Position numbers and translations under genes: made by a program
NCBI GenBank assembly: GCA_032622095.1
Contig: CP136062.1
Coordinates: 55,533,849-55,597,848 of the forward strand
Reading direction: 5' to 3'
Length of the DNA stretch: 64,000 nt
Source of the DNA: Siphonodentalium dalli
Lineage: Eukaryota > Mollusca > Scaphopoda > Gadilida > Siphonodentaliidae
The notes under the pieces: model-generated
The model's input: only the letters and a program-made list of their open reading frames with translations
What the model was told of the DNA's origin: nothing
The model's database searches: none
Shown: in pieces, positions 14,701-64,000 of the stretch
Numbering within the stretch: position 1 is the first letter of the stretch
Layout of the letters: each line of letters starts with the position of its first letter

Positions 14701-16334
14701 GACTTCCTTCCCAGGAAACGGGCAGGATCGTTTAAATTATATTGGGCAATTTCGTGTTAGGTTTCTAAGAGTCCATTCTGATATATTCTCGATTATAAAC
14801 AAACTATGTTTGGTCAAACATAGTCACAATATACATTAACATGATAGTATCGAATTTAGATTGGGCGAATATATCCAACTCCTTTGCTAAATGCCGTTTG
14901 AGAATATAAACATTTGTCACATTTTATAACTGAGTTTTGGCGGCCATTCTGGCGACCATCTTGGGTCAAATAGATCAATATCGAGTGTAATTGAATGACA
15001 CTAACGATATTTAAAACTGTGTACACTTTTGTTTATTTTATTATGCCTATTTCTGTCCAATGTTAATCTAGAACCCCGAGAAGCAAGTTTATTTGTGAAA
15101 TTACATAGCGAATTATTTAATTTGCATTTTTCGGAGTATGGACAACAATTAGACACAAATTACAGCATAATATGTTTTTCAAAGTACTTGGTGTCATGAC
15201 TGATAAAAACAAAGACAAGTCCTACTCGCTAAAAGTTTACGAATAACCGAAAATGATGTAAGGGGCATGTGTAACAATTCAACACATTTCTATATTTCTG
15301 TCGCCATTTTGACAGCCATCTTGGTTTTTTTATCAATCTTGTTCTTTCAAAAGGAAGCTTGGTGCAATTTTATCATTGCCGTAGAAATATTGTTTATTTT
15401 CTGTGTTAAATTTTCTTCCTCACTCAGTGCCCATTCTGCAATTTTGTGTGGCTGCCATGAAGATGATTTGACTTAATATTTGGTATAATTCTGTTGAATT
15501 ATTGGGTATAAGCAGCTATATGGTTCACCAAATTTGCAAATGATTCCATAAGTCCATGGATTTACGCGAAAAAGTAGCACATATTCACATATATTTACTT
15601 TTCCCCAACACATGAGTGATATCAATAAAAATTGGACAGATTTTTGTGATTTCTCCATTTTGGCAGCCATCTTGGCCGCCATCTTAAACTAAAATGCACT
15701 ATTTTGAGTGTAACTATATGGCAATTCACATATTTAAAATATTTTTACATTATCTTCATCAAATTTAGTTATTTTCTGTTCAACTCTTCGCTAGAATCAC
15801 ATAATTGAATTTTTGTTAACTTTCATAGCACATTTTTTAATTCACATTTTAAAGATTGCTGGCAAGAATGAGATCCGAAATATGACATATTATGTTGTAG
15901 AAATGGTTGGATACTAGAATTTATTCAAATTTAGGTCTTTATTCGTTACAAATTTCAAACATCGGTTAATGATTCAAGAGGAAAGTGTGAAAAATCATCA
16001 TTTTCCAAAGTTCAGTCGCCATTTTGGCGGCCATCTTGGTTTATGGTGGCCACTTTTTCTGTCAAATGGAAGTATGGGGTATTAGTTTCACGTCAGTGGT
16101 GAGATAATCAAATTTCTATAATAAATTCACAAGTAGATATTGATCAAACTGACTCAGTGCATACTGTGAAATTGTGTATGGCGGCCATCTTGATGACGTC
16201 ATAAATCCACCCAGTCGCGACCCCAAGGTGTCTAACATTTGTTTTCTGGTGCCAAAGATATCAAGAAACGTCATTGGCATAGTCGCTATATTTCTTCACA
16301 AAGTGCACACGGGAGTGCATAAGAGCCTCTACTA
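11737..16334. repeat. 5.9-kb tandem unit, copy 3, truncated (4598 bp)
   Basis: Copy 3 follows copy 2 with a constant offset of 5884 bases and stops abruptly at 16334. The last shared bases are AGAGCCTCTACTA; in copies 1 and 2 the next bases are the mirror half of the palindrome (GTAGAGGCTC). The array therefore ends within a base of the centre of the unit's inverted repeat, and unrelated single-copy DNA follows. Confidence 0.93.
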
Positions 16335-27140: not shown

Positions 27141-28533
27141 CACATGGTGGGTGCATGGTGAGTACATGGTGAGTGCATGGTGAGTGCACGGTGAGTGCAT
27201 GGTGAGTGCATGGTGAGTGCATGGTGAGTACATGGTGAGTGCATGGTGAGTGCATGGTGAGTGCATGGTGAGTGCATGGTGAGTGCATGGTGAGTGCATG
27301 GTGAGTGCATGGTGAGTGCATGGTGAGTACATGGTGAGTGCATGGTGAGTGCACGGTGAGTGCACGGTGAGTGCACGGTGAGTGCATGGTGAGTGCATGG
27401 TGAGTGCATGGTGAGTGCATGGTGAGTGCATGGTGAGTGCATGGTGAGTACATGGTGAGTGCATGGTGAGTGCACGGTGAGTGCACGGTGAGTGCATGGT
27501 GAGTGCATGGTGAGTGCATGGTGAGTGCATGGTGAGTACATGGTGAGTGCATGGTGAGTGCATGGTGAGTACATGGTGAGTGCATGGTGAGTGCATGGTG
27601 AGTACATGGTGAGTGCATGGTGAGTGCATGTAGTGGGTGCATGGTGAGTGCATGGTGAGTGCGTGTAGTGGGAGCACGGTGAGTGCATGGTGAGTGCATG
27701 GTGAGTGCATGTAGTGGGTGCATGGTGAGTGCATGGTGAATGCATGGTGAGTGCATGTAGTGGGTGCATGGTGAGTGCATGGTGAGTGCATGGTGAGTGC
27801 GTGTAGTGGGTACATGGTGAGTGCATGGTGAGTGCATGGTGAGTGCGTGTAGTGGGTGCATGGTGAGTGTATGGTGAGTGCATGGTGAGTGCGTGTAGTG
27901 GGTGCATGGTGAGTGCATGGTGAGTGCATGGTGAGTGCGTGTAGTGGGTGCATGGTGAGTGCATGTAGTGGGTGCATGGTGAGTGCATGGTGGGTGCATG
28001 GTGAGTGCATGGTGAGTGCATGGTGAGTGTATGGTGAGTGCATGGTGAGTGCATGGTGAGTGCATGTTGGGTGCATGGTGAGTGCATGGTGAGTACATGG
28101 TGAGTGCATGGTGAGTGCATGGTGAGTGCATGGTGAGTGTATGGTGAGTGCATGGTGAGTACATGGTGAGTACATGGTGAGTGCATGGTGAGTGCATGTA
28201 GTGGGTGCATGGTGAGTGCATGGTGAGTGAGTGCATGGTGAGTGCATGGTGAGTGCGTGTAGTGGGTGCACGGTGAGTGCATGGTGAGTGCATGGTGAGT
28301 GCATGTAGTGGGTGCATGGTGAGTGCGTGTAGTGGGTGCATGGTGAGTGCATGGTGAGTGCATGGTGAGTGCGTGTAGTGGGTGCATGGTGAGTGCATGG
28401 TGAGTGCATGGTGAGTGCGTGTAGTGGGTGCATGGTGAGTGTATGGTGAGTGCATGGTGAGTGCGTGTAGTGGGTGCATGGTGAGTGCATGGTGAGTGCG
28501 TGTAGTGGGTGCATGGTGAGTGCATGTAGTGGG
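27141..28533. repeat. 11-bp minisatellite (GTGCATGGTGA)n, ~127 copies
   Basis: The unit is GTGCATGGTGA, with variants GTACATGGTGA, GTGCACGGTGA and GTGYRTGTAGTGG. The last is interspersed at fairly regular intervals from 27630 onward, giving a higher-order pattern. Read on the minus strand, the unit has no stop codon in any frame; 33 bases give an 11-residue repeat such as HHALTMHSPCT. This explains three overlapping open frames of 458-517 codons, which I do not regard as genes. On the plus strand each standard unit contains GGTGAGT, a consensus 5' splice site. Confidence 0.95.
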
Positions 28534-36033: not shown

Positions 36034-36971
36034 GTAAGTATAATTGATTGATTGCTTTCATTTTGTACAATAACACACCGATAACACAAACATGATGGAC
36101 AAGTTAATGGAACGTATTGTAAAGAAGCAACATGACCACGGTGACCGTCTTCGCCAAGTCACAGGCGTGTGCTTCATAAAGTCGTATTTATCCTTTCTAT
36201 ACTAAATACTCACTGACTAGTAGATCCCTTAGGAAATGTTCAGATAATAAATTTAACAAACGACCATACAGTCGTTTGTTGAACTTACTATCTCAATATT
36301 TCCCACCAATGAATATGAACCATGCTATTATATATGTTTTCTGTTGACGGTCTGTTTGTATTATCCGAACACCGCACCTAGTGAATAATAAACCGTTCTA
36401 TTGCACACTTTTATACTGACTGGAATAATCCATTTACTCTAGAATGGTTAACACTATCAGTGGCATTGTGATGCTGAATTTTTTTTTGCTGGAACTAGAA
36501 TAAACAGACAACACATTATCACCGGCTTATGAACATATCAAACAGACATGTTGTTGTCAATTTCGTTGTCACGTCTATTGTAATTCGTCGTAGATAAATG
36601 AGATATATCAAATTTATGGAAATACTGACTCAGTATGAGTCCTTTGTTTCAACGTGCATTCATGGACTAATTCTAATTTATGATCGAAATGGTCATGCAT
36701 CGATCTGGAAGTTAACATTGCAATTTTGTCAGAATGTACGTATACAGGTTTAACGAAATTAAATCACCAACTATTAAATGTATCCCCATTCGCCATTTTA
36801 TCGGATTCGACAAAGCCTTGGGTTAGAGCTATTTTCCTGTCAACCCCTTTAGTTACAGATCTGAATATATAAAAAACGTATTTGAATTTTCAAATAATGA
36901 CAATATGAGCTTATTTTGTACATTTATACAATTAGCCCGGTTGTTTACATTTACGGACGTTATATCCACAG
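36034..36971 (+). other. Intron 1
   Basis: GTAAGT...TATCCACAG borders. It contains palindromic element copy B at 36236-36295 and the dispersed-repeat relative at about 36296-36450 (compare 22582-22750). Nothing else is recognised. Confidence 0.6.
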
Positions 36972-37139
36972 TTGGTGCTGCATGGATGGCATGGAAAGAA
37001 GGGCCATGCAGTGTTACTTGCGGTATGGGAATTTTGACAAGGACTCGAGAATGCCCAACTAATGACCCGCATGTCGCCACGGATGCATGTATCGGCAGTT
37101 ACAAGGAAATTGACTTATGTCAGGAAGCTGCTTGTCCAG
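36972..37139 (+). CDS. TSP1/C-type lectin secreted protein, exon 2: first TSP1 domain
   Basis: A 168-base, phase 1-1 exon between TATCCACAG and GTAATT. It encodes one complete TSP1 module: WMAW (the WxxW C-mannosylation pattern), then CSVTCGMG (which fits the O-fucose site CxxS/TCG), then RTREC and a final CQEAACPG-type end, with six cysteines as expected for disulphide-layered TSP1 repeats. TSP1 modules bind matrix proteins, glycosaminoglycans or receptors outside the cell. The exon is framed by symmetrical phase-1 introns, the classic state of shuffled extracellular modules. Beyond the donor the reading frame runs on into intron, so the true exon is shorter than the open frame. Confidence 0.88.
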
Positions 37140-37187
37140 GTAATTTTCACTTCAACGACCTATTGTCTATCTCGTGTGATAATATCG

Positions 37188-37508
37188 CTTCTAATTCGGC
37201 TGGTAACCAAAAAAACTCGGATGACCCTAAAAACTCGGTGTGTGACCACCCGAGACTTCAAAACTCTACCGATAACCCATCAATCAACTGATGACACACA
37301 TAACTAAGATTGTGTCCATCATAACTCGGCTGGTGATCATCCGAACCTCATAACTCTGCTGATAACCCTTCAAACTCGGCAGATGACAATCAAAACTCGG
37401 TTGGTAACCATCCAAAACCTCAGCACTCGGGTGATAATCTCCAAACTTGACTGATAACTCCGCAAAACTCGGCCGATATCCCCCCTGAACTCGGTTGATA
37501 ACATTCCA
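37188..37508. repeat. Degenerate ~22-bp minisatellite
   Basis: AAAACTCGGYYGRTAACCATCC-like words recur about 14 times (AACTCGGCTGGTGATCATCC, AACTCGGCAGATGACAATC, AACTCGGTTGGTAACCATCC and so on). Its right end abuts the start of the retrotransposon fragment. Confidence 0.85.
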
Positions 37509-37511
37509 TCT

Positions 37512-38680
37512 TTGAGATTCAAAACCCAAAGTATATTGGGAAATTGCTTTACTGAATCCTCACTTTGGTGGAAAACTTTGAATAAATTAATGAAACCGGA
37601 ACCTAAGCCTATACCAGCACTCATATTTAACGATGAATTGATAAATGACAACTTACAAAAAGCCAACACCTTCAACAAATACTTTTGTTCTATATCGTCA
37701 TTGCCAAACGAAAGGGAGATAGAGTTACCTCGCTTTGACCAGTTAACAGAAAGCGAACTAAGTGCCATAGAAATCGACGACGAACTTGTTCACAAATGCC
37801 TACGGTCAATTAAGACGACAAAAGCCTCCGGTTATGATGGCATAAGCCCAAAAGTATTGGAAAACTGTGCCTCTTCTTTAACTGCACCATTAAGATTTAT
37901 TCTTAATATTTTTTTAAAACATGCATACTTTCCCATTGAGTGGAAGAAGGCAAATGTATGTCCAATCTTTAAAAAAGATGACCCTTGTATACCGTCAAAC
38001 TATCGCCCTGTTTCCCTTCTGAGTTGTCTCTCTAAAATCTTTGAAAAATGCATATACCGTTGTCTGTCAGACTATTTGCGTGTACCCAAATTGTTTTCCG
38101 ATCTGCAATCAGGGTTTACTCCCAACGACAGTACTGTATTTCAATTAATCGACATATACCACTATATCATATCATCGCTAGATGAGGGGAAAGAAATAAG
38201 ATATGTCTTTTGCGATATTAGTAAAGCTTTTGATAAGGTCTGGCATCGAGGACTGCTCTTTAAATTGAAAAGAATGGGAATAACAGGAAATATGTATAAA
38301 CTTCTTGAGAATTACTTGGAATCTAGAGAGCAGAAAGTTACAATCAATGGGGTGAGCTCTAATTGGATGCCTGTTTCAGCTGGAGTCCCCCATGGGTCCT
38401 TACTCGGCCCTCTGCTATTTTTGGTCTACATAAATGATATTGTTGGAGGGGTAACTAGCAATATTCGCCTATTTGCGGATGATACTTCCATTTGTCTTGC
38501 CGTTGAAGACCCCACCCTTGCTGCCAACGTAATGAACCAAGATATACAGCGAATATATGAATGGTCGCAAATCTGGGCCGTTAAATTTAATCCATTGAAA
38601 ACAGAGTCAATCTTAGTATCACTGAAGAATATTATTGAAGATCATCCACCCTTAGGATGGCAGGGGAAGATATCATAGAG
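37512..38680 (+). pseudogene. Non-LTR retrotransposon reverse transcriptase, 5'-truncated
   Basis: A 388-codon frame holds the RT core of a LINE ORF2. KASGYDGISP is at about 105-114, the catalytic FCDISKAFDKVWH at 233-245 (motif A Asp235), GVPHGSLLGPLLF at 291-303 (motif B, with His where Gln is usual) and FADD at 321-324 (motif C). The N-terminal endonuclease domain is missing; the frame begins inside the linker before RT, where the minisatellite ends. This is usual for incomplete reverse transcription. The frame closes with a premature stop near residue 388 and is continued by the next entry. It sits in intron 2 in the same orientation as the host gene. The sequence looks most like the Jockey/CR1 group; the exact clade is undetermined. 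Confidence 0.9.
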
Positions 38681-39331
38681 GTGACTGAACATAATCATCT
38701 AGGACTGACATTTAATGATGAAGGGAAGTGGAAAAATCACATCGAAGATATTGAAGAGCGAGCCTCACAACGATTATACATACTTAGGAAGAATAAATAT
38801 GCCCTAGATAGGAGAACATTAGAACGAATTTATCTATCATTTATACGCCCCGTCTTGGAATATGCGTCCCCTGTGTGGGACAATTGCACGGCTGAAGAAT
38901 CACAATTATTAGAAGATATACAATATGAAGCAGCACGTATAATAACTGGGGCTACTAGGTGTTGTAATAGGGATGAATTATTGGTAGAAATTGGATGGCA
39001 GAAACTATCGAAAAGGAGAGAAAAATCAAAACTTGCTCAATTCTATAAAATGACGAGAAAATCAACCCCACAATATCTATATAACTATGTCCCAAGGGAT
39101 TCAACAACTTCAAGTGGATACCCATTCAGGCGCGATAACTTAAGACGTCCCTTTTGCTTTTCTACCTCTTTACAAAAATCATTCATACCACATGCTATTA
39201 AACTTTGGAATGAATTATCAGACGAAGCGAAAATGTGCGAAACGGTTTCCGAATTTAAACAATTCCTGAATAAAGATTGTATAGAACCTCCACAATTCTA
39301 CGAGTTGCATATACACGGCAAAGTCAAATAA
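38657..39331 (+). pseudogene. LINE ORF2, continuation after a frameshift (thumb/C-terminal region)
   Basis: This 224-codon frame overlaps the previous one by about 24 bases and carries on its protein: HLGLTF, RLYILRKNKYALDRRTLERI, SFIRPVLEYASPVWDN and a KLWNELSDE block, all typical of the region C-terminal to RT in animal LINEs. The change of frame at about 38653-38657 is most simply a one-base loss. A second frame change near 39310-39330 separates it from the last segment. Confidence 0.87.
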
Positions 39332-42723: not shown

Positions 42724-45516
42724 GTTGAGAGTGAGATAACATATTGAGAGTAGGATAACACATTGAGAGTAGGATAACATAGTGAGAGTAGGATAACATA
42801 TTGAGAGTAGGATAACATATTGAGAGTATGATAACATCTTGAGAGTAGGATAACATATTGAGAGTATGATAACATCTTGAGAGTAGGATAACATATTGAG
42901 AGTAGGATAACATATTGAGAGTAGGATAACATATTGAGAGTAGGATAACATATTGAGAGTAGGATAACATCTTGAGAGTAGGATAACATATTGAGCGTAG
43001 GATAACATATTGAGAGTAGGATAACATATTGAGAGTAGGATAACATATTGTGAGTATAACATAGTGAGAGTAGGATAACATATTGAGAGTTTGATAACAT
43101 ATTGAGAGTAGGATAACATGTTGAGAGTATAACATAGTGAGAGTAGGAAAACATATTGAGAGTAGGATAACATCTTGAGAGTAGGATAACATATTGAGAG
43201 TAGGCTAACATCTTGAGAGTAGGATAACTTATTGAGGGTTGGATAACATCTTGGGAGTAGGATAACATCTTGGGAGTAGGATAACATATTGAGAGTAGGA
43301 TAACATATTGAGAGCAGGATAACATCTTGGGAGTAGGATAACATATTGAGAGTAGGATAACATATTGAGAGCAGGATAACATATCAACATCATGAGAGTA
43401 TGATGACATATTGAGAGTAGGATAACATCTTGAGAGCAGGATAACATATTGAGAGTATGATAACATATTGAGAGCAGGATAATATATTGAGAGCAGGATA
43501 ACATAGTGAGATCAGGATAACATATTGAGAGTATGATAACATATTGAGAGCAGGATAACATAGTGAGATCAGGATAACATATTGAGAGTAGGATAACATA
43601 TTGATAGCAGGATAACATATTGAGAGTAGGATAACATCTTGAGAGTAGGATAACATATTGATAGTAGGATAACATCTTGAGAGTAGGATAACATATTGAG
43701 AGCAGGATAACATATTGATAGTAGGATAACATATTGAGAGTAGGATAACATATTGAGAGTAAGTTAACATATTGAGAGTAGGATAACATCTTGAAAGTAG
43801 GATAACATATTGAGAATAGGATAACATATTGAGAGTAGAATAACATAGTGAGAGTAGGATAACATAGTGAGAGTAGGATAACATATTGAGAGTATGATAA
43901 CATATTGAGAGTAGGATAACATATTGAGAGTAGGATAACATATTGAGCGTAGGATAACTTATTGAGAGTAGGATAACATATTGAGAGTAGGATAACATCT
44001 TGAGAGTAGGATAACATATTGAGCGTAGGATAACATATTGAGAGTAGGATAACATATTGAGAGTAGGATAACATATTGAGAGTATGATAACATAGTGAGA
44101 GTAGGATAACATATTGAGAGTAGGATAACATCTTGTGAGTAGGCTAACATATTGAGAGTATGATAACATCGTGAGAGTATGATAATATGTTGAGAGTAGG
44201 ATAACATATTGAGAGCAGGATAACATATTGAGAGTATGATAACATAGTGAGAGTAGGATAATATCTTGAGAGTAGGATAACATATTTAGAGTAGGATAAC
44301 ATATTGAGAGTAGGATAACATCTTGAGAGTAGGATAACATATTGAGAGTAGGATAACATCTTGCGAGTAGGATAACATCTTGAGAGCAGGATAACATATC
44401 GAGAGTAGGATAACATCGTGAGAGTATGATAACATATTGAGAGTAGGATAACATCTTGGGAGCAGGATAACATATTGAGAGTAGGATAACATATTGAGAG
44501 TAGGATAACATATTGAGAGCTGGATAACATATTGAGAGTAGGATAGCATCTTGAGAGCAGGATAACATATTGAGAGCAGGATAACATAGTGAGATCAGGA
44601 TAACATATTGAGAGTAGGATAACATATTGAGAGCAGGATAACATAGTGAGATCAGGATAACCTATTGAGAGTAGGATAACATATTGAGATCAGGATAACA
44701 TATTGAGAGTAGGATAACATCTTGAGAGTAGGATAACATATTGATAGTAGGATAACATATTGAGAGTAGGATAACATCTTGGGAGTAGGATAACATATTG
44801 AGAGTAGGATAACATATTGAGAGCAGGATAACATATTGAGAGTAGGGTAACATATTGAGAGTAGGATAACATATTGAGAGTAGGATAACATATTGAGAGT
44901 AGGATAACATCTTGATATTAGGATAACATATTGAGAGTAGGATAACATATTGAGAGTAGGATAACATCTTGGGAGTAGGATAACATATTGAGAGTAGGAT
45001 AACATATTGAGAGCAGGATAACATATTGAGAGTAGGATAACATATTGAGAGCAGGATAACATATTGATAGCAGGATAACATAGTGAGCTCATGATAACAT
45101 ATTGAGATTAGGATAACATATTGAGAGCAGGATAACATAATGAGAGTAGGATAACATATTGAGAGTAGGATAACATATTGAGTAGGATAACATATTGAGA
45201 GTAGGATAACATATAGAGAGTAGGATAACATAGTGAGATCAGGATAACATATTGAGAGTAGGATAACATATAGAGAGTAGGATAACATAGTGAGATCAGG
45301 ATAACATATTGAGAGTAGGATAACATATTAAGAGCAGGATAACATATTGAGAGTAGGATAACATATTTAGAGTAGGATAACATATTTAGAGTAGGATAAC
45401 ATATTGAGAATAGGATAACATATTGAGAGTAGGATAACATATTGAGAGTAGGATAACATATTGAGAGTAGGATAACATATTGAGAGTAGGATAATATAGT
45501 GAGAGCAGGATAACAC
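42724..45516. repeat. 19-bp minisatellite (TTGAGAGTAGGATAACATA)n, ~147 copies
   Basis: The array is long and nearly unbroken. Main variants are TTGAGAGCAGG, CTTGAGAGTAGG, CTTGGGAGTAGG, GTGAGATCAGG and GAGTATGATAAC. Read on the minus strand, 57 bases give a 19-residue repeat (MLSYSQYVILLSICYPTLN) with few stops in any frame, which produces many overlapping false open frames of up to 411 codons. It lies wholly within intron 4. Confidence 0.96.
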
Positions 45517-50803: not shown

Positions 50804-51002
50804 TCAGTATATGGTTATTGAGTGATCATTCTCATCAGGGCAAAAATTATCACACACATTAGAACGGGGTACCTGTAGAATGCGTGTAACAAATGGATCG
50901 ATTATGATTATTATTATTGATTAGTGGACCAACCAACATCGACGAAAAAGATAAAATAGCATCACCAGATGAGAGACAAGTAATTGAACTCAGCCATAGT
51001 TA

Positions 51003-51950
51003 TGGAGTGCGTGGTTCGATCTTAGAAGTCATCGCCACTAGACGCACTTACGACCGCTGATGAAAACAGTCACTCATTATATAAGCGTTGGCCGAAGTAA
51101 GGCAATGTGTGGTTTTCTTTCGGGGGTTATTTTATAAAGGATAATACAGGAATATATTTCATGAATTTTCTGGACGTAATCATCTGGCTATACTAATGCC
51201 TCCCCACAAGGTGCCATCACAGGGAGGTGCGTAGTTCGTGGGTTGATTTTACCGGGATATAGCCCCCCACAATTTTTATAGTTGGAAACTCCACACCCGA
51301 ATTAATAGTATAGCTGAAAATTTCATAACGAAAACAAATTGCGATTATTCCAATAGTTTGAGTTTACAACCGATATATAGAGTGTAAAATTATGTCGTTT
51401 TTTAACCAAGATTCATATATCCCATTTTCAGTAATGTCAAATGACATGGCCAACGGTTGGAATGTTTACAACCTTTTGGGTGTCAGGTTGAAAATGACTA
51501 ACCAGTCGGGTTTGAGTTATCAATTGCAAGATTTCTAATCAACGGGTATGCATGCAAATGAAATTTCCAGAGTTTAGGTCTATTATACATGGGGGGGGGA
51601 CAATTATAAAATCTAAGGCGGACAGGCCTATCCCCAGGGTCCCTGTCGCTGATGGTTGTTATTGAGGCGTAGCTAGCCAGTACGTTTAGATTTTGGGTTG
51701 TCATATATAATGGGGTATATCTAGTTTTGTGGTTCTAATTGGTGGTGACGGAGTGTTTGTTGCGCTAACCTAGTGTCGATCCAGTTTCTCCATTAACACA
51801 TCCTCCACTTTGGATTGTTCACAACACTGTTCGCAAATAACGGGATGTTGGTGTTTTCGATTACCAATGGCCAATCTCTCCGAAACTGGGTTAACATTGG
51901 GCTTATAAATTATGCACGTGTGAAGTTTTCGGGTAAGTTTTTTTTTACAT
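51003..51950. repeat. Intronic duplicated segment, copy A (uninterrupted)
   Basis: This segment is related in direct orientation to 51990-52160 (its left ~170 bp) and to 56474-57345 (the rest). Shared words include CTTAGAAG, ATAAGGCAAT, TTTTCTGGAC, ATCTGGCTA, AATGCCTCCC, GTCACAGGGAGG, AGTTTGAGTT-like, TGCATGCAAATG and GATGTTGGTGTTTTCGA. It is diverged but co-linear. Copy A carries no hairpin insertion. Confidence 0.8.
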
Positions 51951-51989
51951 GCATTGCATTACGAATATAGCCAAACATGTGGCGCCCAT

Positions 51990-54900
51990 TGTTAGGTATG
52001 GCGTGTGTCGACTTTAGAAGCCGTCGCGACAAGATAGTGAGAATCGTACTTATATCGGCATTGGCTGAAATAAGGCAATTTGTTGTTTACTTTCGGGTGT
52101 TATTTTAAATCGGATAACACATGGATACATGCGTTTCAAGTTTTTTTCTGGACATACATGTACGTAAGTAGTATGGGGGTCTCGTTGACTTCACATCTAA
52201 AAAAAGATTTTATGGCGGTAAAATTGTTTGTACTAAATATATTCAAAAAAACAATTCAAAACCTAATTACATCTAAAAAATTTGTGAAACTTTGAGTTTT
52301 CGGTCTCTTACCCAAATATCGGCCGACTATTAAATGTCGAATGTTTTAAAAGTATTTGCGTGTAATATCTTTTGTTATAGGCCAACTATTTTTGTTCAAA
52401 CAAATTTTAAATATTTTTCATGAAACTCTGTTAATTTTATTAATCGAAGTTTAGAAATAGCTTTATACCAATTATATGTGTATGGACTGGTCCGAGTCGC
52501 TGTAATCTTGGCCATTGACACTATAGGTATGAATGCATACATTCCAGTGTTTATCATCAGACGCAGTCTCGTCTATTACATCATATAATTGTCTCCACAA
52601 TACCTGAAATAATTTGACGCCATTACTCTTACATAATTAATAAAAAGCGTTTATTCTTTACTTCTCTATCACGATGAAGTTATTGAGTATATGACACGTG
52701 TGCATTATCGCGAATTATTGGAAGAATTATTGAGAGGTTGTACTATTTTGAAAGCAGTCACGATCGGACAAAGAGCGTGATGCGAAATTACAACCCGAAT
52801 GAACTGACATATTCTATGGAACAAATTTTCAATTATGTACACACACATATTCACACGCGTCAATAGGGTAACACTGTATAGGTCGAAAAGAGTGACACCT
52901 TGGATAAATTTACCAAATGACTGCTTATTATATCTGATGACAGCTATGCGTGTTCCGACTCGTTTGATGTTAGCTCTCGCTCGCGTGTCTGAACATCATT
53001 ACCTGTTTAACGGGATATGATCACGTAAGGTTGATAAGCTGTGTCATTGTTAGCATTAACGCGATAATTAGTTATCAAAAATATGCATACATAATACGTA
53101 CATGTGATAAGACACTCAATAATAGAAGTTACTTCGGTGTTATTGTTATAACAACATTACGTAATAACCACCTATCGACCTATTCATACTTACGCTCATA
53201 TATAATCTTATATAATGTTGCCTCATCGGTATTAACTATGTTAGGGAGTTATGGTATACAAATATCTATGACGAAGCTTCCTTTGACAAGAGATTTTGTT
53301 CACTCAATCACAGACCAACGTTATAATACCCGCCCGCCCCCCACCACAACATCCCCCAACCACCTTCACACAAACATATGCATAAATAATACGTACATGT
53401 GATAAGACACACAATAATAGAAGTTACCTTTGTGTTGTTGTTATAACAACCTTACGTAATAACCACTTATCGAAACCTATTCATACTTACGCTCATATAT
53501 AATCTTATATAATGTTACCTCATCTGTGCTAACTATTTTCGGGAGTTATGGTATACAAATATCTATGACGAAGCTTCCTTTTATGCATGTACATACACGC
53601 TTTCAATTAAGCTATCGATAGCGTGTCTGAACATCATTAGTTGTTTAACGGGATTTGGAAGAATTATTGGAAGAGCGTACGTTTATAGAGTTATTGTTCT
53701 TAGAACGTGATCAGTAAGTGTGCCAATCGGGTATCCACCGATGCCTGCAATGTTTTATTTGCAATAATTGGACATTATAATCTCACATAAATAACAAGGA
53801 GCGTTTATTCATTACCTCTCTCTATCACGATGAAGTTATTAAGCATCGTGTAGCACTATTTCACCAAAGGTCACATGTTAGACGTACACACGTATACATA
53901 CGTAATATCAGACTAAACAAAGCTGTTGATATGTTTCTTTCATCTTTTATATGATAGCGCTATATGTTATATACTCGATAGACCTAGTTACAGTCACAAT
54001 CGCACATAAGCGAAACAAACGCTCTTTATTTAAATAACAGGGAGGCTACTCTAACACTCTTAGTTTTTCCAACAAAATAGTTATCAAATTCGATCACCAA
54101 TAGAACTGTCTGTGAAACAACGATGACTTATAACAATCTTTAACTTATTTATCGATCTATGCTAGAACATGGCTGCAACAAAATCATGACCATAACAAAA
54201 AACATTACCTTACCATTACGCATGAATATAAATTTACCATGCGTAAATATTGTCAGATTATCGTCTGATGAGCAAATCCTATGTTTACATTATACTTAAT
54301 CTCAGGTATGACTAGAATTGTATCATGTGTGCACATGACATCATTAGAAGGGGCAATACACTCAAGGAGTTAAAGTGACACGAAACAAGGGACGTGATGC
54401 AATATTGGTGTTTGAATATTAAAGGAACACAAGACACTCTAAAGGGACACAAGACACTCATTATGAATGAATGTTAACAATACAAGCGCAGTGGTTGAAA
54501 GTTAAAATGACACAGAACAATATTTAAAGTTCAAATTTTCGGGCACTTAATGCGCCTTTTATCATTACGTATTGTTTCTCACTCTACAATTCCCAATAAT
54601 CCACTCACTCTCTCCCCGATAACTAGGTCTATCGAGTATATAACATATAGCGCTATTATATAAAAGATGAAAGAAACATATCAACAGCTTTGTTTAGTCT
54701 GATATTACGTATGTATACGTGTGTACGTCTAACATGTGACCTTTGGTGAAATAGTGCTACACGATGCTTAATAACTTCATCGTGATAGAGAGAGGTAATG
54801 AATAAACGCTCCTTGTTATTTACGTGAGATTATAATGTCCAATTATTGCAAATAAAACATTGCAGGCATCGGTGGATACCCGATTAGCACACTTACTGAT

Positions 54901-57345
54901 CACGTTCTAAGAACAATAACTCTATAAACGTACGCTCTTCCAATAATTCTTCCAAATCTCGTTATACAACTAATGATGTTCAGACACGCTATCGATAGCT
55001 TAATTAAAAGCGTGTCTGTACATGCATAAAAGGAAGCTTCGTCATAGATATTTGTATACCATAACTCCCGAAAATAGTTAGCACAGATGAGGTAACATTA
55101 TATAAGATTATATATGAGCGTAAGTATGAATAGGTCGATAAGTGGTTATTACGTAAGGTTGTTATAACAACAACACAAAGGTAACTTCTATTATTGTGTG
55201 TCTTATCACATGTACGTATTATTTATGCACATTTTTGTGTGAAGGTGGTTGGGGATGTTGTGGTGGGGGCGGGCGGGTATTATAGCGTTGGTCTGTGATT
55301 GAGTGAACAAAATCTCTTGTCAAAGGAAGCTTCGTCATAGATATTTGTATACCATAACTCCCTAACATAGTTAGCACCGATGAGGCAACATTATATAAGA
55401 TTATATATGAGCGTAAGTATGAATAGGTCAATAAGTGGTTATTACGTAATGTTGTTATAACAATAACACCGAAGTAACTTCTATTATTGAGTGTCTTATC
55501 ACATGTACGTATTATGTATGCATATTTTTGATAACTAATTATCGCGTTAATGCTAACAATGACACAGCTTATCAACCTTACGTGATCATATCCCGTTAAA
55601 CAGGTAATGATGTTCAGACACGCGAGCGAGAGCTAACATCAAACGAGTCGGAACAGGCATAGCTGTCAACAGATATAATAGCAGTCATTTGGTAAATTTA
55701 TCCAAGGTGTCACTCTTTTCGACCTATACAGTGTTACCCTATTGACGTGTGTGAATATGTGTGTGTACATAATTGAAAATTTGTTCCATAGAATATGTCA
55801 GTTCATTTGTGTTGTAATTTCGCATCACGCTCTTCGTCCGATCGTGACTGCTTTCAAAATAGTACAACCTCTCAATAATTCTTCCAATAATTCGCGATAA
55901 TGCACACGTGTCATATACTCAATAACTTCATCGTGATAGAAAAGTAAAGAATAAACGCTCTTTATTATTTATGTAAGAGTAATGGCGTCAAATTATTTCA
56001 GGTATTGTGGAGACAATTATATGATGTAATAGACGAGACTGCGTCTGATGATAAACACTGGAATGTATGCATTCATACCTATAGTGTCAATGGCCAAGAT
56101 TACAGCGACTCGGACCAGTCCATACACATATAATTGGTATAAAGCTATTTCTAAACTTCGATTAATAAAACTAACAGAGTTTCATGAAAAATATTTAAAA
56201 TTTGTTTGAACAAAAATAGTTGGCCTATAACAAAAGATATTACACGCAAATACTTTAAAAACATTCGACATTTAATAGTCGGCCGATATTTGGGTAAGAG
56301 ACCGAAAACTCAAAGTTTCATAAATTTTTGAGATTTTTTAAAACTTTTTTTTGAAAATTTTGGAGAACACAAATTAGGTTTTGAATTTTTTTTTTGAATA
56401 TTTTAGTACAAACAATTTTACCGCCATAAAATCTTTTTTTAGATGTGAAGTCAACGAGACCCCCATACTACTTACGTATCTGGCTAAATGAATGCCTCCC
56501 AACAAGAAGTTGTCACAGGGAGGATCCTAGATGATGGATCGTGGTTTGATGTTACAGGGATGTAACTAGCTAGTGCCCCATTTGAAAATTCCACGCGTAT
56601 AATAAACGGTCTAGTTGCAGTAGCTGGAAATGTCAGGTTAAAAAACGAGTTTCAATTATTTAGATAATTTGAGTTTCCAACCGATATTCAGTGTAAAATG
56701 GTGTCGTTTTAGGCCAATATTCACATATTCCTATTTCCAGTAATTTTAAATGAAATGACCAACAGTTAGACATTTCACAACCTTGTGTCAGATCGGACCT
56801 TTCTATAACCATATGGGTTTTGAATTGTCAGTTTCCTAATCAATAGGGGTGCATGCAAATGCAGTTTCCCATAGTTCAGTAGGGGGGGGAGCAGTTAGAA
56901 CATCTAAGGTGGATACCCCCATGCAGCGCCCATGTCACCGATAGTTGTTATTGGGGCATAGCCAGCTAGTACGTTTTGACTTTGGGTTGACATATATAAT
57001 GGGGTAGCTAGATGAATGGTTCCTGTCGTGGGCTGATACAATGACGTAACTATCAGATGCGTTATGGGTGTGTGTTTTGTATGGCAGTGGTTGTTCGTGT
57101 AGTTGTGTGGTCATGCAGGTGGTGTGTCATGGACATTGTCAGGTAATGGGTTGTGACGAATTGTTTTGCGCATACCTTTAGTCGAACCATTTTTCCCCGT
57201 TAGCATATTCTCCACTTTGGTTTTGAACATTGGACACGAAGATGGAAAATATAGTTCTTTTTTTTTCAGAGCTTATATTATTAAATAAACGACTGTTCAC
57301 AAATAACTGGCCGCGATGTTGGTGTTTTCGACTACTTTGCCCAAA
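51990..57345. repeat. Intronic duplicated segment, copy B (split by the 4.3-kb foldback)
   Basis: Copy B is in two pieces, 51990-52160 and 56474-57345, exactly on either side of the foldback element. Placed end to end they match copy A through the junction TTTTCTGGAC...ATCTGGCTA. Copy B has small extra segments around 57010-57170 and 57230-57290. Confidence 0.75.
52161..56478. mobile_element. 4.3-kb foldback element: 1.83-kb arms, 629-bp loop
   Basis: The left arm 52161-53990 and right arm 54620-56478 are inverted copies that agree at nearly every base over long stretches; an insertion of ~35 bp in the right arm near 56330-56365 is the largest difference I see. The ends read TACGTAAGTAGTATGGGGGT and its complement. 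The loop 53991-54619 is unique and holds no gene. Within each arm a ~200-bp segment is repeated in tandem (53080-53284 and 53378-53580 on the left). A 118-123-codon frame beginning MISCVIVSINAIISYQKYAY is present in both arms (53031-53402 plus; 55219-55575 minus) but matches nothing I know. No transposase is visible. I call it a mobile element because copy A preserves the empty site. Confidence 0.85.
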
Positions 57346-57791: not shown

Positions 57792-58143
57792 GTAAGTATA
57801 ACACGACTCGCGATAATGAACACAATGCTGCTCTGGAGCGTGTGAAACGATGTGTTGAGACGTAGTTAGATATTAAACAATGGTCCCCCAGTTACATGTC
57901 ATGTGGAATTTAATCCGGTCGTGTAATAATCGCTTACAATTCACAAAGTTATATTTTATTAAATTCCTTACCCACTTATCACGTGGCGTCGACAAAATCC
58001 ATAACTTTGACAGTAAACTGAGCTAACGAATAAATGAAAACACATTACACCGGAGATCCAAAGAGTTATCAGAATGTTTGCAGGAAATTCCCCAAATAGT
58101 TGTATTCAAAATAAATTCAATTTAGCTTTATAACTTTCTTTTT
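57792..58143 (+). other. Intron 6, 5' start
   Basis: GTAAGT donor followed by about 350 bp of AT-rich DNA without features, up to the 26-bp array. Confidence 0.65.
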
Positions 58144-61100
58144 TGATCTACCGGTTATGGGGATATTGTTGATCTACCCGTTCTGGGGATATTGTTGATC
58201 TACCGGCTATGGGGATATTGTTGATCTACCCGTTATGGGGATACTGTTGATCTACCGGTTATGGGGATATTGTTGATCTATCGGTTATGGGGATATTGTT
58301 GATCTACCGGTCATGGGGATATTGTTGATCTACCCGTTATGGGGATATTGTTGATCTACCGGTTATGGGGATATTGTTGATCTACCCGTTATGGGGATAT
58401 TGTTGATCTACCGTTTATGGGGATATTGTTGATCTACCGGTTATGGGGATATTGTTGATCTACCCGTAATGGGGATATTGTTGATCTCCCGGTTATGTGG
58501 ATATTGTTGATCTACCGGTTATGGGGATATTGTTGATCTACCGGTTATGGGGATATTGTTGATCTACCGGTTATGGGGATATTGTTGATCTACCCGTTAT
58601 GGGGATATTGTTGATCTACCGGTTATGGGGATATTGTTGATCTATCGGTTATGGGGATATTGTTGATCTACCCGTTATGGGGATATTGTTGATCTCCCGG
58701 TTATGTGGATATTGTTGATCTACCGGCTATGGGGATATTGTTGATCTACCGGTTATGGGGATATTGTTGATCTACCGGTTATGGGGATATTGTTGATCTA
58801 CCCGTTATGGGGATATTGTTGATCTACCCGTTATCGGGATATTGTTGATCTACCCGTTATGGGGATATTGTTGATCTACCGGTTATGGGGATATGTTGAT
58901 CTCCCGGTTATGTGGATATTATTGTTGATATACCGGCTATGGGGATATTGTTGATCTACCGGCTATGGGGATATTGTTGATCTACCGGCTATGGGGATAT
59001 TGTTGATCTACCGGTTATGGGGATATTGTTGATCTACCCGTTATGGGGATATTGTTGATCTACCCGTTATGGGGGTATTGTTGATCTACCCGTTATGGGG
59101 GTATTGTTGATCTACCGGTTATGGGGATATTGTTGATCTACCCGTTATGGGGATATTGTTGATCTACCCGTTATCGGGATATTGTTGATCTACCCGTTAT
59201 GGGGATATTGTTGATCTACCGGTTATGGGGATATGTTGATCTCCCGGTTATGTGGATATTATTGTTGATATACCGGCTATGGGGATATTGTTGATCTACC
59301 GGCTATGGGGATATTGTTGATCTACCGGCTATGGGGATATTGTTGATCTACCGGTTATGGGGATATTGTTGATCTACCCGTTATGGGGATATTGTTGATC
59401 TCCCGGTTATGTGGATATTGTTGATCTACCGGCTATGGGGATATTGTTGATCTACCCGTTATGGGGATATTGTTGATCTACCTGTTATGGGGATATTGTT
59501 GATCTACCGGTTATGGGGATATTGTTGATCTACCGGTTATGGGGATATTGTTGATCTACTGGTTATGGGGATATTGTTGATCTACCGGTTATGGGGATAT
59601 TGTTGATCTACCGGTTATGGGGATATTGTTGATATACCCGTTATGGGGATATTGTTGATCTACCCGTTATGGGGATATTGTTGATCTACCCGTTATGGGA
59701 ATGTTGTTGATCTACCGGTTATGGGGATATTGTTGATCTCCCGGTTATGTGGATATTGTTGATACACCGGCTATGGGGATATTGTTGATCTACCGGCTAT
59801 GGGGATATTGTTGATCTACCGGCTATGGGGATATTGTTGATATACCCGTTATGGGGATATTGTTGATTACCCGTTATGGGGATATTGTTGATCTACCCGT
59901 TATGGGGATATTGTTGATCTACCGGTCATGGGGATATTGTTGATCTACCCGTTATGGGGATATTGTTGATCTACCGGTTATGGGGATATTGTTGATCTAC
60001 CCGTTATGGGGATATTGTTGATCTACCGGTCATGTGGATATTGTTGATCTACCGGTCATGGGGATATTGTTGATCTACCCGTTATGGGGATATTGTTGAT
60101 CTACCGGTTATGGGGATATTGTTGATCTCCCGGTTATGTGGATATTGTTGATCTACCGGTCATGGGGATATTGTTGATCTACCCGTTATGGGGATAGTGT
60201 TGATCTACCGGTTATGGGGATATTGTTGATCTACCCGTTATGGGGATATTGTCGATCTACCGGTTATGGGGATATTGTTGATCTACCCGTTATGGGGATA
60301 TTGTTGATCTACCCGTTATGGGGATATTGTTGATCTACCCGTTATGGGGATATTGTTGATCTACCCGTTATGGGGATATTGTTGATCTACCGGTTATGGG
60401 GATATTGTTGATCTACCCGTTATGGGGATATTGTTGATCTACCCGTTATGGGGATATTGTTGATCTACCCGTTATGGGGATATTGTTGATATACCCGTTA
60501 TGGGGATATTGTTGATCTACCGGTTATGGGGATATTGTTGATCTCCCGGTTATGTGGATATTGTTGATCTACCCGTTATGGGGATATTGTCGATCTACCG
60601 GTTATGGGGATACTGTTGATCTACCCGTTATGGGGATATTGTTGATCTACCCGTTATGGGGATATTGTTGATCTACCCGTTATGGGGATATTGTTGATCT
60701 ACCGGTCATGGGGATATTGTTGATCTACCGGTTATGGGGATATTGTTGATCTACCCGTTATGGGGATATTGTTGATCTACCGGTTATGGGGATATTGTTG
60801 ATCTACCCGTTGTGGGGATATTGTTGATCTACCCGTTATGGGGATATTGTTGATCTACCCGTTATGGGGATATTGTTGATCTACCGGTTATGGGGATATT
60901 GTTGATCTACCCGTTGTGGGGATATTGTTGATCTACCCGTTATGGGGATATTGTTGATCTACCCGTTATGGGGATATTGTTGATCTACCCGTTGTGGGGA
61001 TATTGTTGATCTACCGGTTATGGGGATATTGTTGATCTACCCGTTATGGGGATATTGTTGATCTACCGGTTATGGGGATATTGTTGATCTACCCGTTATG

Positions 61101-64000
61101 GGGATATTGTTGATCTACCGGTTATGGGGATATTGTTGATCTACCCGTTATGGGGATATTGTTGATCTACCGGTTATGGGGATATTGTTGATCTACCCGT
61201 TATGGGGATATTGTTGATCTACCGGTTATGGGGATATTGTTGATCTACCCGTAATGGGGATATTGTTGATCTACCGGTTATGGGGATATTGTTGATCTAC
61301 CGGTTATGGGGATATTGTTGCTCTACCCGTTATGGGGATATTGTTGATCTACCCGTTATCGGGATATTGTTGATCTACCCGTTATGGGGATATTGTTGAT
61401 CTACCGGTTATGGGGATATGTTGATCTCCCGATTATGTGGATATTATTGTTGATATACCGGCTATGGGGATATTGTTGATCTACCGGCTATGGGGATATT
61501 GTTGATCTACCGGTTATGGGGATATTGTTGATCTACCCGTTATGGGGATATTGTTGATCTACCCGTTATGGGGGTATTGTTGATCTACCCGTTATGGGGA
61601 TATTGTTGATCTCCCGGTTATGTGGATATTGTTGATCTACCGGTTATGGGGATATTGTTGATCTACCCGTTATGGGGGTATTGTTGATCTACCCGTTATG
61701 GGGATATTGTTGATCTCCCGGTTATGTGGATATTGTTGATCTACCCGTTATGGGGATATTGTTGATCTACCGGTTATGGGGATATTGTTGATCTACCCGT
61801 TATGGGGATATTGTTGATCTACCGGTTATGGGGATATTGTTGATCTACCCGTTATGGGGATATTGTTGATCTACCGGTTATGGGGATATTGTTGATCTAC
61901 CCGTTATGGGGATATTGTTGATCTACCCGTTATGGGGATATTGTTGATCTACCGGTTATGGGGATATTGTTGATCTACCCGTTATGGGGATATTGTTGAT
62001 CTACCGGATATGGGGATATTGTTGATATACCCGTTATGGGGATATTGTTGATCTACCCGTTATGGGGATATTGTTGATCTACCGGTTATGGGGATATTGT
62101 TGATCTACCCGTTATGGGGATATTGTTGATCTACCGGTTATGGGGATATTGTTGATCTACCCGTTATGGGGATATTGTTGATCTACCGGTTATGGGGATA
62201 TTGTTGATCTACCCGTTATGGGGATATTGTTGATCTACCGGTTATGGGGATATTGTTGATCTACCCGTTATGGGGATATTGTTGATCTACCGGTTATGGG
62301 GATATTGTTGATCTACCCGTTATGGGGATATTGTTGATCTACCGGTTATGGGGATATTGTTGATCTACCGGTTATGGGGATATTGTTGATCTACCCGTAA
62401 TGGGGATATTGTTGATCTACCCGTTATGGGGATATTGTTGATCTCCCGGTTATGTGGATATTGTTGATCTCCCGGTTATGTGGATATTATTGTTGATCTA
62501 CCGGTTATGGGGATATTGTTGATCTACCGGCTATGGGGATATTGTTGATCTACCGGCTATGGGGATATTGTTGATCTACCGGCTATGGGGATATTGTTGA
62601 TCTACCGGTTATGGGGATATTGTTGATCTACCCGTTATGGGGATATTGTTGATCTACCCGTTATGGGGGTATTGTTGATCTACCCGTTATGGGGATATTG
62701 TTGATCTCCCGGTTATGTGGATATTGTTGATCTACCGGTTATGTGGATATTGTTGATCTCCCGGTTATGTGGATATTGTTGATCTACCGGTTATGGGGAT
62801 ATTGTTGATCTCCCGGTTATGTGGATATTGTTGATCTACCGGTTATGGGGATATTGTTGATCTACCGGTTATGGGGATATTGTTGATCTCCCGGTTATGT
62901 GGATATTGTTGATCTCCCGGCTATGGGGATATTGTTGATCTACCGGTTATGGGGATATTGTTGATCTACCCGTTATGGGGATATTGTTGATCTACCCGTT
63001 ATCGGGATATTGTTGATCTACCCGTTATGGGGATATTGTTGATCTACCGGTTATGGGGATATTGTTGATCTACCCGTTATGGGGATATTGTTGATCTACC
63101 CGTTATCGGGATATTGTTGATCTACCCGTTATGGGGATATTGTTGATCTACCCGTTATGGGGATATTGTTGATCTACCGGTTATGGGGATATTGTTTATC
63201 TACCCGTTATGGGGATATTGTTGATCTACCCGTTATGGGGATATTGTTGATCTACCCGTTATGGGGGTATTGTTGATCTACCCGTTATGGGGATATTGTT
63301 GATCTCCCGGTTATGTGGATATTGTTGATCTACCCGTTATGGGGATATTGTTGATCTACCGGTTATGGGGATTTTGTTGATCTACCCGTTATGGGGATAT
63401 TGTTGATCTACCGGTTATTGGGATATTGTTGATCTACCCGTTATGGGGATATTGTTGATCTACCGGTTATGGGGATATTGTTGATCTACCCGTTATGGGG
63501 ATATTGTTGATCTACCGGTTATGGGGATATTGTTGATCTACCCGTTATGGGGATATTGTTGATCTACCCGTTATGGGGATTTTGTTGATCTACCGGTTAT
63601 GGGGATATTGTTGATCTACCCGTTATGGGGATATTGTTGATCTACCGGATATGGGGATATTGTTGATCTACCCGTTATGGGGATATTGTTGATCTACCCG
63701 TTATGGGGATATTGTTGATCTACCGGTTATGGGGATATTGTTGATCTACCCGTTATGGGGATATTGTTGATCTACCGGTTATGGGGATATTGTTGATCTA
63801 CCCGTTATGGGGATATTGTTGATCTACCGGTTATGGGGATATTGTTGATCTACCCGTTATGGGGATATTGTTGATCTACCGGTTATGGGGATATTGTTGA
63901 TCTACCCGTTATGGGGATATTGTTGATCTACCGGTTATGGGGATATTGTTGATCTACCCGTTATGGGGATATTGTTGATCTACCGGTTATGGGGATATTG
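58144..64000. repeat. 26-bp minisatellite, ~225 copies, runs off the window
   Basis: The unit is GATCTACCGGTTATGGGG, then ATATTGTT. The main variation is ACCGGTTATGG versus ACCCGTTATGG, often strictly alternating (for example 61010-61260, 62060-62350 and 63440-63990), which makes a 52-bp dimer. Minor variants: CTCCCGGTTATGTGG, ACCGGCTATGG, TTATCGGG, and a linked pair GGGATATGTTG (one base short) plus ATATTATTGTTG (three bases long). The linked pair recurs 340 bp apart at 58891 and 59231 and again near 61417, evidence of duplicated blocks of 13 units. Stops break all frames; no gene is encoded. It sits in intron 6 of the TSP1/lectin gene. Confidence 0.97.

What the first reader, a model, noticed from the sequence alone, without database searches (positions are those of the whole stretch)
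52161..56478. 4.3-kb near-perfect hairpin element with its pre-insertion site preserved next door
Arms of ~1.83 kb around a 629-bp loop interrupt copy B of an intronic duplication at TTTTCTGGAC|...|ATCTGGCTA, while copy A (51003-51950) is continuous there. This is direct evidence that the hairpin arrived as a unit after the duplication. The arms are very similar, implying youth or arm-to-arm conversion. No transposase is encoded, and the class is not clear to me.
Basis: partly seen in the sequence, partly recalled or inferred. Interest (0 to 1): 0.75.

Follow-up and report, generated by a model that had tools for sequence, protein, structure and literature searches.

The report
Gene-less hairpin with Maverick/Polinton ends
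A 4.3-kb piece of mobile DNA, almost wholly made of two mirror-image arms and without recognisable genes, inserted into a eukaryotic genome and carries the end signature of the virus-like Maverick (Polinton) elements, which suggests a stripped-down passenger moved by their enzymes.

Summary
The hairpin is real; its boundary moves inwards by 6 bp on each side. The element is 52167-56472 (4306 bp): arms of 1824 and 1853 bp (29 substitutions in 1818 aligned columns, 6 indels) around a 629-bp loop. A 6-bp duplication with AGTAGT...ACTACT ends is the published signature of vertebrate Mavericks. Of 91 AGTAGT/ACTACT pairs in the window, this alone has matching flanking hexamers (0.02 expected). Both flanks align with an uninterrupted neighbouring copy, so it arrived as a unit. 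None of 18 open pieces scanned reaches a Pfam cut-off. Best reading: a non-autonomous, foldback-shaped satellite of a Maverick, replicated and integrated by enzymes supplied in trans. Whether the arms are an ordinary long TIR or a palindromised defective genome is open; the host genome is not held and no relative was found in the collections searched. A TA duplication cannot be excluded on one copy. New variant of a known kind; class assignment about 0.75.

The parts
52161..52166 (.). left copy of the 6-bp target-site duplication TACGTA
   Evidence: identical hexamer at 56473-56478; the only direct match of more than 4 bp among boundaries tested near the ends
52167..52172 (+). left end motif AGTAGT, (AGT)2
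   Evidence: motif published for vertebrate Mavericks (PMC8097293, passages)
52167..53990 (+). left arm (long terminal inverted repeat), 1824 bp
   Evidence: inverted repeat with 54620-56472, 98.4% in aligned columns
53076..53284 (+). internal direct repeat module c (left arm)
   Evidence: 92% to 53371-53581; mirrored at 55322-55530
53371..53581 (+). internal direct repeat module c' (left arm)
   Evidence: mirrored at 55029-55237
52605..52690 (+). module a, partial direct repeat with 53760-53846
   Evidence: 79.5%, E 1e-12
53760..53846 (+). module a'
52945..53019 (+). module b, partial direct repeat with 53582-53657
   Evidence: 79%, E 6e-10
53582..53657 (+). module b'
53991..54619 (.). single-copy loop, 629 bp, without recognised gene
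   Evidence: its stop-free pieces of at least 40 aa have no Pfam match above cut-off
54620..56472 (-). right arm, 1853 bp
   Evidence: holds a 35-bp stretch absent from the left arm
56467..56472 (+). right end motif ACTACT, (ACT)2
56473..56478 (.). right copy of the target-site duplication TACGTA
51986..52160 (+). left flank = left part of copy B
   Evidence: 51986-52156 aligned to copy A 50994-51178, score 68 against a maximum of 18 in 500 shuffles
56479..57223 (+). right flank = right part of copy B
   Evidence: aligned to copy A 51182-51717 and 51736-51816
50994..51816 (+). copy A: uninterrupted paralogue showing the empty site

Best explanation
The hairpin is a non-autonomous, foldback-shaped derivative (satellite) of a Maverick/Polinton element. 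Shown: unit insertion, TACGTA on both sides, AGTAGT/ACTACT ends, kilobase-long arms, no recognised gene. Inferred: a helper Maverick supplied the protein-primed DNA polymerase, which would start on the repeated AGT at either end, and the retrovirus-type integrase, which joined both ends to staggered cuts 6 bp apart. Also inferred: the arms were identical, or nearly so, when it landed, because copying of a linear molecule whose ends pair keeps the two ends alike; since then they have diverged by 1.6% in total.
For: A 6-bp duplication next to AGTAGT...ACTACT at the exact edge of the hairpin. Of the 91 pairs in the window with ACTACT more than 200 bp downstream of AGTAGT (9 and 20 sites), only this one has identical flanking hexamers; 0.02 were expected. 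A palindromic hexamer followed by AGTAGT or AGAGAG at a random boundary has a frequency of about 1.2e-5 from the separate frequencies (20 of 2,000,000 drawn). The signature is reported for vertebrate Mavericks: 134 intact elements with 6-bp duplications, TIRs of 46-1447 bp, (AGT)2//(ACT)2 the commonest end motif, with a proposed role in protein-primed replication (PMC8097293, passages). Another paper gives 6 bp as characteristic of Polinton (PMC10045372, passages). Empty-site alignment on both sides. Even spread of arm differences (variance P 0.27).
Against: No Maverick gene or fragment was recognised: 0 of 18 stop-free pieces of at least 40 aa in left arm and loop reach a Pfam cut-off (the best sub-threshold match is DUF4828, E 0.017). 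The element is 4.3 kb, against 12.7-24.6 kb for intact vertebrate Mavericks. No sequence relative was found: 5 of 6 viral contigs patterns gave none, and one 14-mer gave 44 stretches without partner end or extended match. Because TACGTA is a palindrome, a TA or ACGT duplication with longer ends is formally possible, and the empty-site score does not favour TACGTA (56, against 58 for TA and 57 for none). The end motif was published for vertebrates; the host here is unknown. One copy only.
Confidence: 0.75

Rival explanations
1. Foldback element of another superfamily (Mutator/FB type, P/Galileo type): a cut-and-paste transposon with long, internally repetitive TIRs moved by a DDE transposase in trans.
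For: Long TIRs with internal repeats and a gene-less middle mark foldbacks such as Tetris (PMC4079207, passages) and, for the TIRs, Galileo (PMC3688188, passages); this arm has modules a, b and c each twice.
Against: Tetris has 8-10 bp duplications; Galileo's are 7 bp (recalled). Among boundaries within about 12 bp of the ends, with k from 2 to 11 and at least 5 inverted bases, the longest direct duplication is TACGTA.
Confidence: 0.1
2. A TA-duplicating element (Tc1/mariner or relative) with ends CGTAAGTAG, or another superfamily with 2-4 bp duplications.
For: TA and ACGT duplications are also compatible because TACGTA is palindromic; the empty-site score is 58 for TA against 56 for TACGTA, a small difference in its favour.
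Against: It leaves unexplained the coincidence of a palindromic hexamer directly followed by AGTAGT (about 1.2e-5 with AGAGAG allowed). I know of no TA superfamily with CGTAAG ends (recall only). Ginger1 and Ginger2 have 4-5 bp duplications, Ginger1 with TGTNR ends (PMC2836005, passages).
Confidence: 0.1
3. Palindromised defective genome (a sub-case of the best explanation, about how the arms arose): the molecule that integrated was a defective replication product in which one end of a Maverick, origin included, had been copied to both ends, like the symmetric defective genomes that I recall from other protein-primed DNA viruses.
For: Arms exceed the 46-1447 bp TIRs of vertebrate Mavericks; whole arms are uniformly alike; the c/c' duplication predates the last time the arms were one sequence (11 of 19 variable columns separate c from c' in both arms).
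Against: No gene remnant was recognised in the arms. TIRs of hundreds to thousands of base pairs are reported for related Polinton-like viruses (PMC12220804, passages), so arms of 1.8 kb need no special origin. There is no parent element to compare. All three points in favour also fit a simple internal deletion.
Confidence: 0.2
4. IS3EU/GingerRoot-type transposon, the other eukaryotic group seen here with 6-bp duplications.
For: [quoted passage not shown]
Against: Their ends are TA..TA, occasionally TG..CA; the only boundary here with a 6-bp duplication starts AGTAGT.
Confidence: 0.03
5. Assembly fold-back artefact or in-situ inverted duplication of local DNA.
For: Fold-back reads and local inverted duplications do occur (general knowledge).
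Against: Target-site duplication, differing non-inverted flanks that both align to copy A, and 29 substitutions plus 6 indels between arms.
Confidence: 0.02

Closest known systems
Maverick/Polinton self-synthesising elements
   Same: 6-bp target-site duplication, (AGT)2//(ACT)2 ends, long terminal inverted repeats (definition from passages)
   Different: 4.3 kb instead of 12.7-24.6 kb; no gene recognised; arms (1824/1853 bp) longer than the 46-1447 bp of intact vertebrate copies
Foldback elements (FB, Tetris, Galileo)
   Same: long arms with internal direct repeats; as in Tetris, a gene-less middle
   Different: 6-bp instead of 8-10 bp (Tetris) duplication; Maverick-type ends
IS3EU/GingerRoot transposons
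   Same: 6-bp target-site duplication
   Different: their ends are TA..TA, occasionally TG..CA; no boundary here fits both features
Symmetric defective genomes of protein-primed viruses (recalled; two searches listed no paper on them)
   Same: linear palindrome-like molecule with the same end twice
   Different: this one is integrated in a chromosome, and its derivation from one end of a parent is not shown

Membership tests
Maverick/Polinton | 6-bp target-site duplication | tested here: met
   TACGTA on both sides; being palindromic it does not rule out a shorter one
Maverick/Polinton | conserved end motifs: (AGT)2//(ACT)2, (AG)3//(CT)3 or, in one fish, (AC)3A//T(GT)3 | tested here: met
   AGTAGT...ACTACT abutting the duplication
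Maverick/Polinton | long terminal inverted repeats | tested here: met
   1824 and 1853 bp
Maverick/Polinton | protein-primed PolB, rve integrase and morphogenesis genes (autonomous element) | tested here: not met
   0 of 18 stop-free pieces of at least 40 aa in left arm and loop reach a Pfam cut-off; so it is not filed as an autonomous Maverick, only as a putative satellite with Maverick ends
Maverick/Polinton | size about 13-25 kb (intact vertebrate copies) | tested here: not met
   4306 bp; range
Maverick/Polinton | end sequence shared with an autonomous Maverick of the same host | not testable with these tools
   no genome is held for this window; viral contigs gave no relative
Mutator-type foldback | 8-10 bp target-site duplication | tested here: not met
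   no direct match of 7-11 bp at any boundary tested
Mutator-type foldback | long internally repetitive arms | tested here: met
IS3EU/GingerRoot | TA..TA (or TG..CA) ends with 6-bp duplication | tested here: not met
   definition
Tc1/mariner | TA duplication | tested here: inconclusive
   TA is contained in TACGTA
Tc1/mariner | DDE/D transposase or ends shared with an autonomous member | tested here: inconclusive
   no transposase recognised in the element, which a non-autonomous copy would also lack; shared ends could not be tested without the host genome

The most novel reading that the evidence does not exclude
A germline-integrated, palindromised defective genome of a Maverick: during protein-primed replication one end, origin included, was copied onto both ends, the replication and packaging genes were lost, and the snap-back molecule was integrated by helper integrase. 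It would be a molecular fossil of a defective satellite that competes with a virus-like element.
Probability: 0.2. Interest if true: 0.75.

Novelty: new variant of a known kind. Interest (0 to 1): 0.5.

Why it matters
Foldback elements without a known transposase are hard to classify; Tetris, for instance, was given to Mutator on its duplication length (PMC4079207, passages). Here the ends point to Mavericks, which combine a protein-primed DNA polymerase with a retrovirus-like integrase (PMC6431247, passages). If Mavericks have gene-less satellites moved in trans, their replication and integration work on substrates far below the usual size, and such satellites can be mined to define the minimal ends, to date recent Maverick activity and to look for interference with virus-like elements. 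On print: the searches showed 20 of 86, 20 of 83, 20 of 33, 20 of 25, 2 of 2 and 20 of 41 papers as titles and abstract starts, and none announces a hairpin or gene-less Maverick; the phrases 'non-autonomous polinton' and 'non-autonomous maverick' occur in none of the 20 listed. Most subscription papers are not in the library and Repbase was not searched.

Tried and rejected
Relatives. Exact patterns from the arm end and from modules a and b in viral contigs gave nothing. The 14-mer gave 44 stretches; with L001, 45 records were examined: 0 of 45 had ACTACT followed by the same hexamer within the stretch held (several stretches are only part of a longer contig). The BLAST matches at the element's end were 16-19 bases long; four other weak matches of 26-33 columns inside the element had E 0.83. 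Genome contigs gave one bacterial hit to an 18-mer, which I take as chance. The phage collection gave no match for left arm plus loop.

RNA families at gathering threshold and tRNAs: none in the window. Gene remnants: sub-threshold Pfam matches only, namely Exotox-A_bind E 0.084 and AtPDCT1_2 E 0.094 for the 142-aa frame, Pex16 E 0.052, RHIM E 0.23, DUF4828 E 0.017 and NfrA_C E 0.06. The 142-aa frame itself is matched in length by 4 of 500 dinucleotide shuffles: slightly unusual, not evidence of a gene. The right arm was not scanned separately. A PHROGs scan was asked for and failed and was not repeated.

Patchy arm-to-arm conversion: no clustering of differences. Adenovirus-type defective genomes: searches found nothing usable (0 papers; 9 papers, on other subjects by title), so that comparison is recalled. 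Papers looked at by passages for short or non-autonomous Mavericks: PMC6431247, PMC8504770, PMC10294476, PMC8905726, PMC2884549, PMC6035795, PMC4642659, PMC12747079; PMC8504770 lists Maverick consensuses of 600-4500 bp, but as fragments with a polymerase or integrase domain only. None of the passages seen describes a hairpin form.
Full report
What is there. The window looks eukaryotic: a reverse-transcriptase frame (RVT_1; its non-LTR type is my reading), a thrombospondin type 1 domain and long satellites. No host genome is held. The arms match along their whole length: 29 substitutions (18 transitions) in 1818 aligned columns and 6 indel events, one of 35 bp. Differences are spread evenly over 18 bins (variance P 0.27; longest identical run 221 columns, P 0.54).

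Where it ends. The outermost six letters on either side, TACGTA, are their own reverse complement. A target-site duplication of this sequence is hard to see, because it simply prolongs the inverted repeat. Boundary pairs within about 12 bp of the ends were listed with the direct duplications they would give, for lengths of 2 to 11 and at least 5 inverted bases. The only duplication of more than 4 bp is TACGTA, with the element running from 52167 (AGTAGTATGG...) to 56472 (...CCATACTACT), 4306 bp. Shorter readings (TA, CG, ACGT) are contained in the palindrome or lie beside it and cannot be excluded on this single copy.

What the ends say. Passages of PMC8097293 state that vertebrate Mavericks carry conserved 6-bp end motifs, most commonly (AGT)2//(ACT)2, that intact copies have 6-bp target-site duplications, and that the repeated end motif would allow the jumping-back step of protein-primed replication. 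Both features are met here, abutting each other at the hairpin's edge. With the window's base composition, a palindromic hexamer followed by AGTAGT or AGAGAG has a frequency of about 1.2e-5 at a random boundary (product of the separate frequencies; 20 of 2,000,000 drawn). After allowing for some 25 superfamilies that I might have compared (recalled number), that is still below 1 in 1000. In the window there are 9 AGTAGT and 20 ACTACT sites; of the 91 pairs with ACTACT more than 200 bp downstream, one has identical flanking hexamers, this one, where 0.02 were expected.

Insertion as a unit. When the flanks are joined with one TACGTA, they align through the junction with the neighbouring copy A (660 identities in 901 aligned columns, gap columns not counted). 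Each side aligns independently (left: score 68 against a maximum of 18 in 500 shuffles; right: E 5e-55). The empty-site score itself does not tell which duplication length is right (56 for TACGTA, 58 for TA, 57 for none). Copies A and B are 69-73% alike while the arms are 98.4% alike, so the insertion is much younger than the duplication, unless the arms were later homogenised. The order of events inside the element can be read: modules c and c' (13-15 differences in 209 columns) are separated by the same letters in both arms at 11 of 19 variable columns, so the internal duplication came first and the two arms were one sequence later.

What it lacks. None of the 18 stop-free pieces of at least 40 aa in left arm and loop (list) has a Pfam match above cut-off (one, ten, seven); the best sub-threshold match is DUF4828, E 0.017. 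Nothing related was found with the patterns and stretches tried in the viral, genome and phage collections. These collections are of viruses, prokaryotes and phages, so the misses say little about the host's own Mavericks. Mavericks can be common in animals: a table of the hard clam genome paper gives 1.69 and 1.93 in what I take to be its per-cent-of-genome columns (PMC8905726, a cut passage). This is no evidence that the host here is a bivalve.

How it most likely works. Shown: unit insertion, TACGTA on both sides, Maverick-type ends, long uniform arms, no recognised gene. Inferred: replication and integration by the proteins of a helper Maverick acting on the ends in trans, and near-identity of the arms at insertion. 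Open: whether arms of 1.8 kb are simply this family's TIR. Intact vertebrate copies have 46-1447 bp; Polinton-like viruses in cryptophytes and chrysophytes have TIRs of hundreds to thousands of base pairs (PMC12220804, passages). The bolder alternative is that the arms were made by copying one end onto the other, as in defective genomes of protein-primed viruses (recalled; two searches gave no paper).

Rivals. Foldback elements of the Mutator and P superfamilies share the shape but not the duplication length or the ends (Galileo's duplication length recalled). IS3EU/GingerRoot share the 6-bp duplication but not the ends. Ginger1 and Ginger2 differ in duplication length, Ginger1 also in its ends. 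A TA-duplicating element remains formally possible. An assembly artefact is contradicted by three independent features.

Verdict. The element is a plausible gene-less satellite of a Maverick/Polinton with a foldback shape: a new variant of a known kind, resting on one copy.

Noticed in passing
1-16334: About 2.8 tandem copies of a unit of 5.85-5.88 kb, 98.8-99.4% alike, each with inverted and direct sub-repeats at roughly 65-84% identity.
   Followed up: no
58143-64000: 26-bp satellite, about 225 copies, 94% matches, strongly strand-asymmetric, running to the window end.
   Followed up: no
42725-45515: 19-bp tandem array, about 147 copies, with strong G over C skew; another array of 11-bp units, about 122 copies, at 27143-28526.
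   Followed up: no
36827-39331: An open frame with a thrombospondin type 1 domain (E 1e-7) lies just before a reverse-transcriptase frame (RVT_1, E 1e-28).
   Followed up: partly
52974-53399: A 142-aa open frame within the arm, mirrored at 137 aa in the other arm; 4 of 500 dinucleotide shuffles of the arm give one as long. No family above cut-off.
   Followed up: partly
52605-53846: Arm modules lie in the order a b c c' b' a', all in direct orientation, so simple tandem duplication does not explain them.
   Followed up: no
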